Shown: positions 1 through 6,856 of the stretch, piece by piece | Layout: each line of letters opens with the position of its first letter | Position numbering within the stretch: the stretch's first letter is position 1 | Source of the DNA: a virus | DNA length: 53,767 nucleotides | Strand: one strand, 5' to 3' | IMG/VR virus record: IMGVR_UViG_3300021963_000162 | Location: 1 to 53,767 of that record | Notes under the pieces: generated by a model | The model's database searches: none | What the model was told of the DNA's origin: nothing | What the model saw: the letters and a program-made list of their open reading frames with translations, nothing else | Position numbers and translations under genes: made by a program

Positions 1-121
1 TGATAAAGATGAAATTGTGAAAGTTGGATTACAGGTTGCTGTATTTGAACATGATAATTATGGTGGCAGACAATTGCGCCAAGATTTTGTTGATGTTGAA
101 CGAGTGAAAATTAAATTATGA
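1..121 (+). CDS. C-terminal end of an unidentified phage protein (partial)
   Basis: An open frame enters from the left edge and stops at TGA 119-121, giving the last 39 residues of a protein that ends in VDVERVKIKL. The stop overlaps the next start codon (ATGA), so the two genes are probably translationally coupled. The fragment is too short to identify. Its reading is supported only by the absence of stops and by the tight overlap. Confidence 0.6.
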   Translation, partial: DKDEIVKVGLQVAVFEHDNYGGRQLRQDFVDVERVKIKL

Positions 122-4145: not shown

Positions 4146-5737
4146 TGGCATTACCAACAGGTCAAATTAAATTCAGTGATTTAAATAGAGAACTCGGTAA
4201 ATCACTATCAACTACAATCAACCTAAATGATTCTATCGTCCAAGTGGTGGAGGGAAATCCATCCGATGGTGTTAGCATGTCCCAGTTGCGTGGAAAATCA
4301 AAAACTTATACCTCACTTATCGCAACAAATCAAAAAAATTTAAATATTTACAATACTTTGGTTGCACAAGGATGGGACAAACAATCGTATGTTACATTCA
4401 TAATAGAAAATGGTGTTTACATTTGGAGTGATAATATATCATTACCTGCTTTGACTTCTGGTGGCCCTTTTCCAAATGGATTGACTATAGTTAATAAAGG
4501 TTATATCATGGGTAAAGGTGGTGCCGGTGGTGGTCCAGCTGCTGCCGGTGAATCGGGAGGACCTGCAATATCTATAACTACAAATGTTATTATAGACAAT
4601 ACATACGCCAGTGCTTATATTGGTGGTGGAGGCGGAGGTGGTGGGTCTGGTGGTTATGGAGCATATAATTATGCCGGTGGCGGCGGCGGTGCTGGTGGCG
4701 GTGTTGGTGGTGCTGGGTTTGGATCGACCACATATGCAGGTGGATCTGGCGGCGCAATTGGTCAAGTTGGCGCAAATGGAGTTAATGGACAATCAACAAT
4801 ACGAGCGCAACAATCATATGGTGGTGGTGCTGGTGGTGGCGGCGGTTATCAACGAGTAGGCGGTGGCGGTGGTGGCCGAATTTTCCCTGGTACTAGTGGT
4901 GCAGGAGGTTATGAATACGCTCCAGTTAGTGCGCCAACCAAATACACCTATGCGGGTAAGGGTGGTGCCAGCAATCTGCCAGGAGAAAATTCTTATTTGG
5001 TTAATGGTGGAACCTCAGGATATTTGTCTGCTGGTGGCGGTGGTGGTTGGGGTGCTGCAGGCGGTCAAGGTGTTGCAGCAGGCGGTGCAGGCGGCAAAGC
5101 GGTTGAAACTAATAGTTATACTGTTACTTGGGTTAATAATAATACTACAAGAGTTTATGGTTCTGTTGGTGGAGTGTTCAAAAATCCATTTTCTTCATAT
5201 AGTTTTACTACATCTGGTGTCGATGCTGGTGGTGGTGGACCAATATCAGCACCAGGAAAAATTAAGCCTACATCAGGAAGTTTTGTAGGCCAGTCAGTTT
5301 CTGTTCCTGTTGCGTTAACACTGACAAGTTATTGGGCTGATAGTAATGCTGGATCACAAACATATAATTCACCAAGAGATTCGGTTTTTGTGTCTTCTAC
5401 AACAAACTGGACAGTTACAGACCTTATCAATTTGGGAATTAATCATACCAATGTTCACACAACATCAACTACCAGAACAGTAAGTCTTGTATTTGACGTA
5501 GACGAATCTATGAATGCTGGATATTATATTATTACTAGGTCAGGCGCAGTCACATCTATATCTCTGTGGGCCACTGGTACATATACAGGGGTATACTCAA
5601 CACGACAAGTTGCTGGCGGCCGTCAAAGAAATATATCTGGTTCTTGGACATTGCCAATATTAAATGATAATCAACTTTTAGTGCCTGCTTGGGGTGATGG
5701 TACTGGCACAAATAACCTTAGATGGTCAATAACCTAA
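4145..5737 (+). CDS. glycine-rich tail-fibre/adhesin protein
   Basis: A 530-residue protein. ATG 4145 is chosen because it overlaps the previous stop and gives the fibre module MALPTGQIKFSDLNRELGKS. Residues 70-130 look like a PF-type beta module (YVTFIIENGVYIWSDNISLP), residues 120-335 are glycine-rich (GGGGGGGGSGGYG, GGGGGAGGGVGG), and the last 190 residues form a non-repetitive beta-rich domain ending NNLRWSIT. The layout suggests a fibre tip with a polyglycine sandwich followed by a separate C-terminal domain. It is the last gene before the accessory cassette. Receptor unknown. Confidence 0.75.
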   Translation: MALPTGQIKFSDLNRELGKSLSTTINLNDSIVQVVEGNPSDGVSMSQLRGKSKTYTSLIATNQKNLNIYNTLVAQGWDKQSYVTFIIENGVYIWSDNISLPALTSGGPFPNGLTIVNKGYIMGKGGAGGGPAAAGESGGPAISITTNVIIDNTYASAYIGGGGGGGGSGGYGAYNYAGGGGGAGGGVGGAGFGSTTYAGGSGGAIGQVGANGVNGQSTIRAQQSYGGGAGGGGGYQRVGGGGGGRIFPGTSGAGGYEYAPVSAPTKYTYAGKGGASNLPGENSYLVNGGTSGYLSAGGGGGWGAAGGQGVAAGGAGGKAVETNSYTVTWVNNNTTRVYGSVGGVFKNPFSSYSFTTSGVDAGGGGPISAPGKIKPTSGSFVGQSVSVPVALTLTSYWADSNAGSQTYNSPRDSVFVSSTTNWTVTDLINLGINHTNVHTTSTTRTVSLVFDVDESMNAGYYIITRSGAVTSISLWATGTYTGVYSTRQVAGGRQRNISGSWTLPILNDNQLLVPAWGDGTGTNNLRWSIT

Positions 5738-5742
5738 GGCTG

Positions 5743-5771
5743 TTGCCAAAATTTATAATTTAATGTATAAT
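5743..5771 (+). promoter_or_regulatory. sigma70-type promoter for the tmRNA
   Basis: TTGCCA at 5743-5748 and TATAAT at 5766-5771 with exactly 17 bases between them. Predicted start of transcription is near 5778, just ahead of the acceptor piece of the permuted tmRNA. This is a host-style vegetative promoter, unlike the TAAATA elements before structural genes. Confidence 0.75.
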
Positions 5772-5841
5772 GTGAAGATATGGTTGTATGAAGCAACTAG
5801 AAATGTGTTCTGGACGCCGGGGCAGTGCCGGCCAGGTCCAC

Positions 5842-5912
5842 CAAAAGAACTTTTGCATTAGCCACACCAGTAATGCAGTATGTGGGGGGAATGTTAGTCA
5901 ATAGTTCTTTTG
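5842..5912 (+). repeat. inverted repeat in the tmRNA intervening segment
   Basis: CAAAAGAACT (5842-5851) is perfectly complementary to AGTTCTTTTG (5903-5912). The pair lies directly beyond the acceptor stem, so in the precursor it would extend that stem by ten base pairs and close the intervening loop. A smaller hairpin, GCATTA/TAATGC, sits inside. Such a structure would present the ends for processing into two pieces. Confidence 0.75.
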
Positions 5913-5997
5913 ATGGGCCTGACACAGTTTCGACAGGGCAAATAGTACAGAAGTGGACAACTCACCAGAGTAGGTGTAAAAACTAAATCAAGTAAAC

Positions 5998-6030
5998 GCA
6001 AACGATGAAAAGTTCGCATTGGCAGCCTAA
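5998..6030 (+). other. tmRNA tag reading frame ANDEKFALAA
   Basis: From the presumed resume codon GCA at 5998 the frame reads ANDEKFALAA and stops at TAA 6028-6030. It has the length of the E. coli tag ANDENYALAA and the same ALAA terminus recognised by ClpXP. Only residues 5 and 6 differ. The tag is intact, so the RNA is probably functional. Confidence 0.9.
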
Positions 6031-6103
6031 ACGCTGACTAGGGTTTTTGGTAGTTTATCCTCGTAACAGAATTAAACTACTACAGAATAATGATTTTCGC
6101 TAC

Positions 6104-6133
6104 TTGACATTTCATATCTTTTCAATATATAAT
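6104..6133 (+). promoter_or_regulatory. sigma70-type promoter for pqqA
   Basis: A perfect TTGACA box at 6104-6109 and a perfect TATAAT box at 6128-6133, separated by 18 bases. Transcription would start near 6140, leaving a leader of about 35 bases before the pqqA start. It appears designed for the host RNA polymerase. Confidence 0.8.
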
Positions 6134-6174
6134 CCAGTTGCAACATTTCGTTGTGACATTATAGGAGAACTAAT

Positions 6175-6249
6175 ATGAAATGGTCTACACCTGCAGCAAG
6201 CGATATGCGTTTTGGTTTTGAAATCACTATGTATATTGCTAATCGTTAA
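6175..6249 (+). CDS. pqqA: PqqA, PQQ precursor peptide
   Basis: A 24-residue peptide beginning MKWSTPAASDMRF and ending FGFEITMYIANR. PqqA is the ribosomally made substrate for pyrroloquinoline quinone: PqqE, with chaperone PqqD, crosslinks a Glu and a Tyr, and the linked pair becomes the cofactor. Here Glu16 and Tyr20 are present with the required E-x-x-x-Y spacing and the same numbering as in 24-residue bacterial PqqA, and the flanking GFE-TMY-NR and N-terminal K-W are typical. AGGAGA lies 7 bases before the ATG. No pqqB-E genes are in the window, so host enzymes must process the peptide. The gene stands alone between a consensus promoter and a terminator-like hairpin. Being so short it is easily missed by gene callers. 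Confidence 0.92.
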   Translation: MKWSTPAASDMRFGFEITMYIANR

Positions 6250-6257
6250 AAGAGTTT

Positions 6258-6295
6258 TGATGGGTTTACTCTAAAAGAAACCCATCATTTTGTTT
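6258..6295 (+). terminator. hairpin terminator after pqqA
   Basis: TGATGGGTTT (6258-6267) and AAACCCATCA (6278-6287) form a perfect 10-bp stem with a 10-base loop, followed by TTTTGTTT. It lies 8 bases after the pqqA stop. The U-run is interrupted, so some read-through to the gene at 6314 is likely; the hairpin could also stabilise the short pqqA message. Confidence 0.75.
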
Positions 6296-6313: not shown

Positions 6314-6856
6314 TTGAAAAAATTGAGTTTATTTTTGGCCACTTTGGTCGTGAGTGTTTCAGCAATGGCACAAGGTTATGCATCATTGGAGTATTCTGAT
6401 GAAACTAATCGTGCAACAGACGCATCTAACATTAAAGAAGCGTTGGTTGTAGGTAATAAAGTTGGTTCTACTGACTATAGCCTTAAAATGGAAAACAGCC
6501 AAACTGCATTTGGAAGTGGTTCACTTTCACAAGGTTTGGAAGTTCGTGTAAAACAATCTATCGGTGCTTTCTATGTTGGCGGCCGTTTGGGTGAAAAAGT
6601 TTCTAGTTCATCACACTTCAGCCACTATGCAGTTGATGCTGGTGTTAAGTTCCCATTGGTTGCTGGTTTTACTGGTGATGTTGGTGGTCGTTACCGCAAC
6701 GCATTTGATACTGCAAATGAATATCAAACAACCCGTGTTCATGCAGCAGTTGGTTACGATTTAACCAAACAAGACAAAGTTGCAGTTCGTTGGAGCCGTT
6801 CATACGGTGACGAAGAAAAAGATGCATGGCGTCTACAATATACTCGTAGTTTCTAA
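6314..6856 (+). CDS. secreted outer-membrane beta-barrel-like protein
   Basis: A 180-residue protein with a clear signal peptide (MKKLSLFLATLVVSVSAMA, cleavage probably AMA-QG). The mature part alternates polar and hydrophobic residues like a small beta barrel (GAFYVGGRLGEKV, AVDAGVKFPLVAG, HAAVGYDLTKQ) and ends LQYTRSF, with the C-terminal Phe typical of barrels inserted by BamA. The start is TTG with AGGAG six bases upstream. No own promoter was seen, so it is probably expressed by read-through from pqqA. It may alter the infected cell surface, for example by masking a receptor, or act as a pore. This is inference; no named family was recognised. Confidence 0.75.
   Translation: MKKLSLFLATLVVSVSAMAQGYASLEYSDETNRATDASNIKEALVVGNKVGSTDYSLKMENSQTAFGSGSLSQGLEVRVKQSIGAFYVGGRLGEKVSSSSHFSHYAVDAGVKFPLVAGFTGDVGGRYRNAFDTANEYQTTRVHAAVGYDLTKQDKVAVRWSRSYGDEEKDAWRLQYTRSF

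What the first reader, a model, noticed from the sequence alone, without database searches (positions are those of the whole stretch)
6104..6295. Phage-encoded pqqA cassette with its own promoter and hairpin
A 24-residue frame has the Glu16/Tyr20 pair and flanks of the PQQ precursor PqqA, and stands alone between a TTGACA-18-TATAAT promoter and a 10-bp hairpin. PqqA is the substrate, not an enzyme, of PQQ synthesis, so a phage copy would supply more precursor to the host PqqD/E machinery and keep PQQ-dependent dehydrogenases (for example methanol dehydrogenase) running during infection. A tiny metabolic gene like this is easily missed by gene callers. The peptide and signals are seen in sequence; the metabolic role is inference.
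Basis: partly seen in the sequence, partly recalled or inferred. Interest (0 to 1): 0.92.

Follow-up and report, generated by a model that had tools for sequence, protein, structure and literature searches.

The report
Phage gene for PQQ cofactor precursor
This freshwater phage carries a real 24-residue gene for PqqA, the peptide from which bacteria build the redox cofactor PQQ; the same tiny, mostly unannotated gene turns up alone in well over a hundred viral contigs and in cultured phages, often behind an operator-like DNA palindrome shared with the hosts' own pqq genes, which suggests phages top up a cofactor ingredient during infection.

Summary
Observation confirmed: window 6175-6249 encodes a full-length PqqA (Pfam 37 bits, cut-off 21.1; NCBIfam equivalog 38.5, cut-off 20) with a perfect sigma-70 promoter, RBS and terminator-like hairpin, in a T4-like phage fragment. 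It follows a permuted phage tmRNA; related phages have the same site empty.
It is not unique. None of 47 pqqA-positive viral records has PqqE; one of 46 tested has a PQQ alcohol dehydrogenase. W, P, R, E and Y are invariant and dN/dS is about 0.12, so it is a maintained PqqE substrate.
Two corrections. The window's PqqA matches freshwater Comamonadaceae-type hosts (20-21/22), not Methylophilaceae (13-16/22), so methanol dehydrogenase is not the specific target. And a 17-bp palindrome (CTMAKGAWWWTCMTKAG), found de novo upstream of host pqqA and pqqB, is also upstream of most phage pqqA genes, suggesting that phages copied the host's PQQ operator.
Best reading: precursor-supply auxiliary gene. 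Phage pqqA was reported before (Lake Baikal 2020; reservoir viruses 2026); its breadth, host matching and shared operator appear new. No function was tested.

The parts
5720..6090 (+). permuted (two-piece) phage tmRNA directly upstream; tag ANDEKFALAA; neighbour, not part of the PQQ function
   Evidence: Rfam RF01850 110.6 bits and RF04321 121.7 bits; same neighbour in relatives
6086..6104 (+). candidate PQQ-box operator AATAATGATTTTCGCTACT (degenerate copy of CTMAKGAWWWTCMTKAG)
   Evidence: rank 6 of 53,749 window positions with a motif trained on other phages, at the modal position -95; just below the 5% control threshold with the host-trained motif (4.9 against 4.98)
6104..6133 (+). sigma-70 promoter TTGACA-18-TATAAT
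   Evidence: 12/12 match; kept in relatives L281, L311, L345, L376, with a changed spacer in the last three
6137..6157 (+). 5'-UTR inverted repeat GTTGCAAC...GTTGTGAC
   Evidence: direct sequence reading; different stem sequences at the same place in relatives; stems of 7 or more pairs in 62% of phage pqqA leaders against 35% of random segments
6164..6167 (+). ribosome-binding site GGAG
   Evidence: direct sequence reading
6175..6249 (+). pqqA, 24 codons plus stop: MKWSTPAASDMRFGFEITMYIANR
   Evidence: PF08042 37 bits, TIGR02107 38.5 bits
6258..6287 (+). terminator-like hairpin followed by ATTTTGTTT
   Evidence: RNA fold -13.8 kcal/mol, z -2.76
6314..6856 (+). downstream neighbour, 180-aa protein of unknown family, TTG start, leader-like N terminus; marks the insertion site
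   Evidence: 60 related loci; no Pfam or PHROG hit

Best explanation
A genuine pqqA auxiliary metabolic gene. During infection the phage transcribes it from its own strong promoter; the peptide is taken up by the host's PqqD/PqqE (Glu-Tyr cross-link), then PqqF/G, PqqB and PqqC, giving PQQ. Because PqqA is consumed one molecule per PQQ, while the enzymes turn over, one 75-bp gene is the cheapest way to keep PQQ-dependent periplasmic oxidation and respiration going. An operator palindrome shared with the host's pqqA and pqqB suggests that the phage copy can also answer to the host's PQQ regulator. Shown by sequence: the peptide, signals, conservation, isolation from the enzymes, host-type matching, shared operator (strong for phages as a group, suggestive for this phage). 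Inferred: expression, processing, raised PQQ, benefit to the phage, and the regulator.
For: Profile hits well over cut-off. All 120 contigs of a scan that fixed only GFE[IV]TMY encode PqqA; W, P and R, not fixed by the pattern, are 123/123 invariant. Tyr-replaced scan: 0 hits; Glu-replaced scan: 3 hits, none PqqA. dN/dS 0.117 in phages, 0.112 in hosts. 137 pqqA contigs fall into 27 neighbourhood groups. Six distinct cultured Methylophilales phage genomes carry it. No PqqE in 47 pqqA-positive viral records. Hosts multiply pqqA alone. PqqE in 7 of 8 host-like genomes. Palindrome found independently upstream of host and phage pqqA, and in whole genomes upstream of pqqA and pqqB.
Against: No expression or biochemical data. 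31 of 48 records of related phages show no pqqA (many are fragments), so it is dispensable. MEP401/402 lack a good operator, and the window's own operator is degenerate. The host of this phage is inferred from the peptide alone; two of the best-matching genomes (L172, L174) lack a clear palindrome at their own pqqA. In Acetobacter pasteurianus extra pqqAB raised PQQ by only 29% against eightfold for the whole cluster (PMC7936290), so precursor is not always limiting.
Confidence: 0.74

Rival explanations
1. Neutral passenger: a host pqqA picked up by chance next to the tmRNA, an acquisition hotspot, and not used.
For: Presence and absence at the same site in close relatives; 17 of 48 related records positive.
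Against: Low dN/dS, identical peptide in relatives whose next gene is only 72% identical, invariance of substrate residues, 27 neighbourhood groups, kept promoter and RBS.
Confidence: 0.07
2. Decoy or competitor: phage PqqA occupies PqqD/PqqE, or its operator titrates the host PQQ regulator, to shut down rather than feed PQQ synthesis.
For: Inference only: a high-copy phage operator could titrate a regulator, and the peptide is substrate-like.
Against: A decoy would be expected to lose the reactive Glu or Tyr; none found with either replaced. Phage and host peptides have the same invariant residues.
Confidence: 0.1
3. The peptide has been reused for another purpose, for example PQQ as an antioxidant or signal, or precursor for another radical-SAM peptide product.
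For: PQQ has roles beyond dehydrogenases in the general literature (from memory); the host's target enzyme here is unknown (one search shows PQQ alcohol dehydrogenase over cut-off in only 4 of 8 host-like genomes).
Against: Equivalog-level match; no phage-encoded radical-SAM partner of the PqqE family over cut-off.
Confidence: 0.09

Closest known systems
Lake Baikal phage population VP_266 pqqA (PMC7678222)
   Same: pqqA on a T4-like phage contig of presumed methylotroph phages, proposed to support methanol oxidation
   Different: There it comes with phage methanol dehydrogenase; here pqqA is alone, Comamonadaceae-like, in a tmRNA-linked cassette with operator-like site and promoter; the wide spread in cultured phages is not in the passages read
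Virus-encoded pqqA/D/E listed as phosphate-solubilisation genes in reservoir viruses (PMC13188868)
   Same: viral pqqA noted among auxiliary genes
   Different: listed only; no peptide, context or regulation described in the passages read
Scattered multi-copy host pqqA of Methylophilaceae (PMC4109929)
   Same: stand-alone pqqA genes away from pqqBCDE, 3-12 per genome, with the same palindrome
   Different: chromosomal, Methylophilaceae sequence type
Cyanophage photosynthesis auxiliary genes (psbA), from general knowledge
   Same: phage supplies a fast-consumed host component to keep energy metabolism running
   Different: PqqA is a consumed peptide substrate, not an enzyme or complex subunit

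Membership tests
PqqA (PF08042 / TIGR02107) | profile match over curated cut-off | tested here: met
   37 bits against 21.1; 38.5 against 20
PqqA (PF08042 / TIGR02107) | Glu-x3-Tyr pair that becomes PQQ | tested here: met
   E16 and Y20 present; not replaced in any PqqA found by the viral scans made
PqqA (PF08042 / TIGR02107) | short (about 22-30 aa) stand-alone open frame with start, RBS and stop | tested here: met
   24 codons, GGAG, TAA
PqqA (PF08042 / TIGR02107) | cross-linked by PqqE with PqqD | not testable with these tools
   needs biochemistry
phage auxiliary metabolic gene | lies in a phage genome among phage genes | tested here: met
   gp32, gp59, baseplate, PhoH around it; cultured phage genomes
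phage auxiliary metabolic gene | host has the rest of the pathway | tested here: inconclusive
   host inferred only from peptide type; 7 of 8 such genomes have PqqE over cut-off; PqqB, C and D not searched in them
phage auxiliary metabolic gene | expressed in infection and changes host metabolism | not testable with these tools
   no expression data
pqqABCDE biosynthesis operon | pqqB-E next to pqqA | tested here: not met
   no PqqE over cut-off in 47 pqqA-positive viral records; in the window the larger frames scanned by profile show nothing PQQ-related

The most novel reading that the evidence does not exclude
Unrelated phages of several PQQ-making hosts have repeatedly taken the consumed peptide precursor of a redox cofactor, together with the host's pqq operator, so that a single 75-bp gene plugs the phage genome into an undescribed PQQ regulon of the host and sets cofactor supply in infected cells.
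Probability: 0.42. Interest if true: 0.84.

Novelty: new variant of a known kind. Interest (0 to 1): 0.7.

Why it matters
The gene is so short that it is unannotated as pqqA in cultured phage genomes, yet it is found in well over a hundred viral contigs and in all six Methylophilales phage genomes inspected. It points to PQQ supply as a bottleneck in infected methylotrophs and freshwater Comamonadaceae, gives a cheap host marker (PqqA type), and exposes a candidate PQQ regulon operator in hosts. Cultured phage-host pairs (P19250A, Melnitz, Venkman, MEP301) make all of it directly testable.

Tried and rejected
Chance frame: rejected by profiles, invariance and recurrence. Bacterial contamination: rejected for the window (phage genes around it); accepted for the 'Acinetobacter phage MD-2021a' hit opened, where pqqA heads a full pqqBCDE operon. 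Methylophilaceae as host of this phage: disfavoured by peptide type; the tmRNA gave no host link (25 candidate host genomes searched, one 39-base match only). Fur box: the operator resembles a Fur core (AATGATAATCATT), considered from memory but not adopted, because whole-genome sites sit at pqqA and pqqB. Direct use of the 24-mer in the search for related loci failed (too short), so degenerate DNA patterns were used. A TTGAC-type promoter is not general: only 2 of 118 phage pqqA loci have one (TTGACN-16..18-TANNNT) within 160 bases.

Full report
CHECK OF THE OBSERVATION. The frame 6175-6249 (+) reads MKWSTPAASDMRFGFEITMYIANR. It passes the curated cut-offs of both PqqA models by a wide margin: PF08042 37 bits against 21.1 and TIGR02107 38.5 bits against 20. 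Searched over the whole record, PF08042 finds this place only, and nothing in 14 control genomes. The promoter TTGACA-18-TATAAT at 6104-6133 is perfect; a perfect promoter is expected 0.08 times in a window of this composition and three are present. A GGAG lies 7 bases before the ATG. The hairpin 6258-6287 folds at -13.8 kcal/mol, z -2.76, and is followed by a T-rich stretch. So the described cassette is there at the stated coordinates.

SURROUNDINGS. G000 is a virus record of 53,767 bases. Around the cassette are T4-like genes: gp32, gp59 helicase loader, baseplate hub and wedge proteins, PhoH, a cell-wall hydrolase. Nearest isolates by baseplate protein are Pelagibacter phage HTVC008M and the Methylophilales phages Melnitz, at about 40% identity; by gp32 they are cyanophages at 56%. 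Directly upstream is a permuted tmRNA, 5720-6090, whose tag reads ANDEKFALAA. Downstream is a 180-aa protein without Pfam or PHROG match, found in 60 viral loci.

THE SAME SITE IN RELATIVES. Upstream of that 180-aa gene, relatives show three states: tmRNA, then promoter-pqqA-hairpin, then the gene (L281, L311, and similar cassettes in L345 and L376); tmRNA followed directly by pqqA without its own promoter (L287, L292, L300, L314); and tmRNA followed directly by the gene, with no pqqA (L286, L288, L298, L303). tmRNAs were confirmed by Rfam in L281, L287, L298, L300, L303, L304, L311, L320, L345 and L370. Whole-record searches give pqqA in 17 of 48 related records, many of them fragments. The gene therefore behaves as an insertable cassette. 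In L310-L312 the PqqA peptide is identical to the window's while the next gene is 72% identical, and the three nucleotide differences in the 63 compared bases are silent.

HOW WIDESPREAD. A tblastn of the peptide against phage records finds it in Methylophilales phages Melnitz (four isolates), MEP301, MEP401, MEP402 and Venkman, in Methylophilaceae phage P19250A, and in an uncultured podovirus. In P19250A, MEP301, MEP401, MEP402 and Venkman no feature is annotated there; in Melnitz a hypothetical protein on the other strand is. Of the two Acinetobacter records, the one opened is bacterial DNA with a full pqq operon. Terminase large subunit was found in 23 of 50 viral records tested, and the largest pqqA contigs are 356 and 367 kb. 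By shared neighbouring proteins, 137 contigs fall into 27 groups, that is, many different settings; some singletons are short contigs. I did not settle whether phages MEP431-434 (listed in the taxonomy) carry it.

IS IT A WORKING SUBSTRATE? The scan fixed G-F-E-[IV]-T-M-Y only, yet Trp, Pro and Arg further upstream are invariant in 123 of 123 sequences. A scan for the same stretch with the Tyr codon replaced by codons starting A, C or G found nothing; one with the Glu codon replaced by codons not starting with G found three places, none of them PqqA. These scans cover most but not all substitutions. The pooled dN/dS is 0.117 for phage and 0.112 for host genes. This is what is expected of a substrate that must still be recognised and cross-linked, and it speaks against decay or an inert decoy.

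ENZYMES ARE LEFT TO THE HOST. No record among 47 pqqA-positive viral records has PqqE over the family cut-off, whereas two Methylophilaceae genomes searched alongside do. Only one of 46 viral records tested (L056, 72 kb) has a PQQ-dependent alcohol dehydrogenase over cut-off; that contig resembles the published Lake Baikal arrangement. Methylophilaceae genomes multiply pqqA alone: 100 of 100 have it, mean 4.33 copies, 97 with more than one; the literature gives 3-12 copies against usually one set of the other genes (PMC4109929). A bacterial lineage that raises only the precursor dose is good circumstantial evidence that precursor supply matters. Against a simple view, extra pqqAB in Acetobacter pasteurianus raised PQQ by 29% only, the whole cluster eightfold (PMC7936290).

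WHICH HOST? The peptide types separate. Methylophilaceae PqqA ends EVTMYV[MC]N[KR] and shares 13-16 of 22 residues with the window. The closest cellular sequences are genomes labelled Comamonadaceae, Comamonas, Rhodoferax, Burkholderiales or beta proteobacterium (L172, L174, L181, L153 at 21/22; L149, L152 at 20/22). P19250A, whose host is a Methylophilaceae isolate, carries exactly the Methylophilaceae/Methylopumilus type, which supports reading host from peptide. In a sample of 151 genomes of the Rhodoferax MAG's family only 32 have pqqA. Seven of eight best-matching genomes have PqqE over cut-off and four have a PQQ alcohol dehydrogenase over cut-off. The tmRNA gave no host link. So the likely host is a freshwater Comamonadaceae-like bacterium, and the dehydrogenase served is not necessarily methanol dehydrogenase. 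This host call rests on 22 residues and is the weakest link.

A SHARED OPERATOR. Comparing upstream regions showed a repeated element. Motif finding by expectation maximisation, run separately on non-redundant phage (114) and host (120) pqqA upstream regions, gave the same kind of top motif in both, far above shuffled phage sequence (log-likelihood 525 and 702 against 65). The host form is the palindrome CTMAKGAWWWTCMTKAG. In 14 whole genomes it occurs, with at most one mismatch, two to five times per Methylophilaceae genome against none for the reversed control pattern there, and many of the sites read lie upstream of pqqA copies and, in four genomes, upstream of pqqB. Trained on hosts only, the motif exceeds the 5% control level in 74 of 112 phage pqqA upstream regions. 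Trained on phages of the other peptide types only, it exceeds it in 19 of 25 of the window's type, and ranks the window site 6086-6104 sixth of 53,749 positions, at the modal distance of 95 bases before the Trp codon. With the host-trained matrix the window's site is just under the 5% level (4.9 against 4.98), so for this one phage the claim is suggestive; for phages as a group it is strong. Good matches are present in Melnitz, P19250A, Venkman and the podovirus, a weaker one in MEP301, none in MEP401/402. Some Burkholderiales hosts (L149, L152, L153, L181, L185) have it; L172, L174, and the few Burkholderia, Paraburkholderia and Methylomonas tested do not. The regulator is unknown. Two literature searches for a described pqq operator found none; that library is open-access only.

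MECHANISM. Most likely, the phage makes PqqA from a strong promoter; host PqqD/PqqE and the later enzymes convert it to PQQ; because the peptide is consumed and the enzymes are not, supplying it alone can hold up cofactor supply while host transcription fails. Expression, processing and benefit are inferred. The operator could mean activation under the conditions in which the host itself makes PQQ; titration of a repressor is possible.

KNOWN OR NEW? Phage pqqA was reported in Lake Baikal VP_266 with methanol dehydrogenase (PMC7678222) and listed among reservoir virus genes (PMC13188868). The papers on OM43 phages that I searched do not mention pqqA. What appears new is the breadth, stand-alone state, presence in cultured phages, host-type matching, insertion next to the tmRNA, and the operator shared with host pqqA and pqqB.

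Noticed in passing
window 5720-6090: Permuted phage tmRNA (tag ANDEKFALAA), missed by ARAGORN but clear in Rfam; no close full-length match in 25 candidate host genomes.
   Followed up: partly
host loci L491-L506: Palindrome CTMAKGAWWWTCMTKAG upstream of host pqqA copies and pqqB: a candidate PQQ regulon with unknown regulator.
   Followed up: partly
window 6137-6157 and the same place in L304, L317, L321, L007, L370: Inverted repeat at the 5' end of the pqqA transcript whose sequence changes while pairing is kept; possible mRNA-stabilising stem.
   Followed up: partly
L016, L018, L043, L051, L058: A separate phage PqqA type (I/V-RLGFE[IV]TMYF) whose host group was not identified.
   Followed up: no
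L056 (72-kb contig, G026:34049-35731): The only pqqA phage contig tested that also has a PQQ alcohol dehydrogenase.
   Followed up: no
L039 and L306 (356- and 367-kb contigs): pqqA on jumbo-phage-sized contigs.
   Followed up: no
window 6314-6856: 180-aa protein with leader-like N terminus, unknown family, widespread in related viral contigs next to the tmRNA/pqqA site.
   Followed up: no
CAKLQF020000010.1, CAKLQH020000055.1: Records labelled Acinetobacter phage MD-2021a; the first has a bacterial pqqABCDE operon at the hit and looks mislabelled, the second was not opened.
   Followed up: partly
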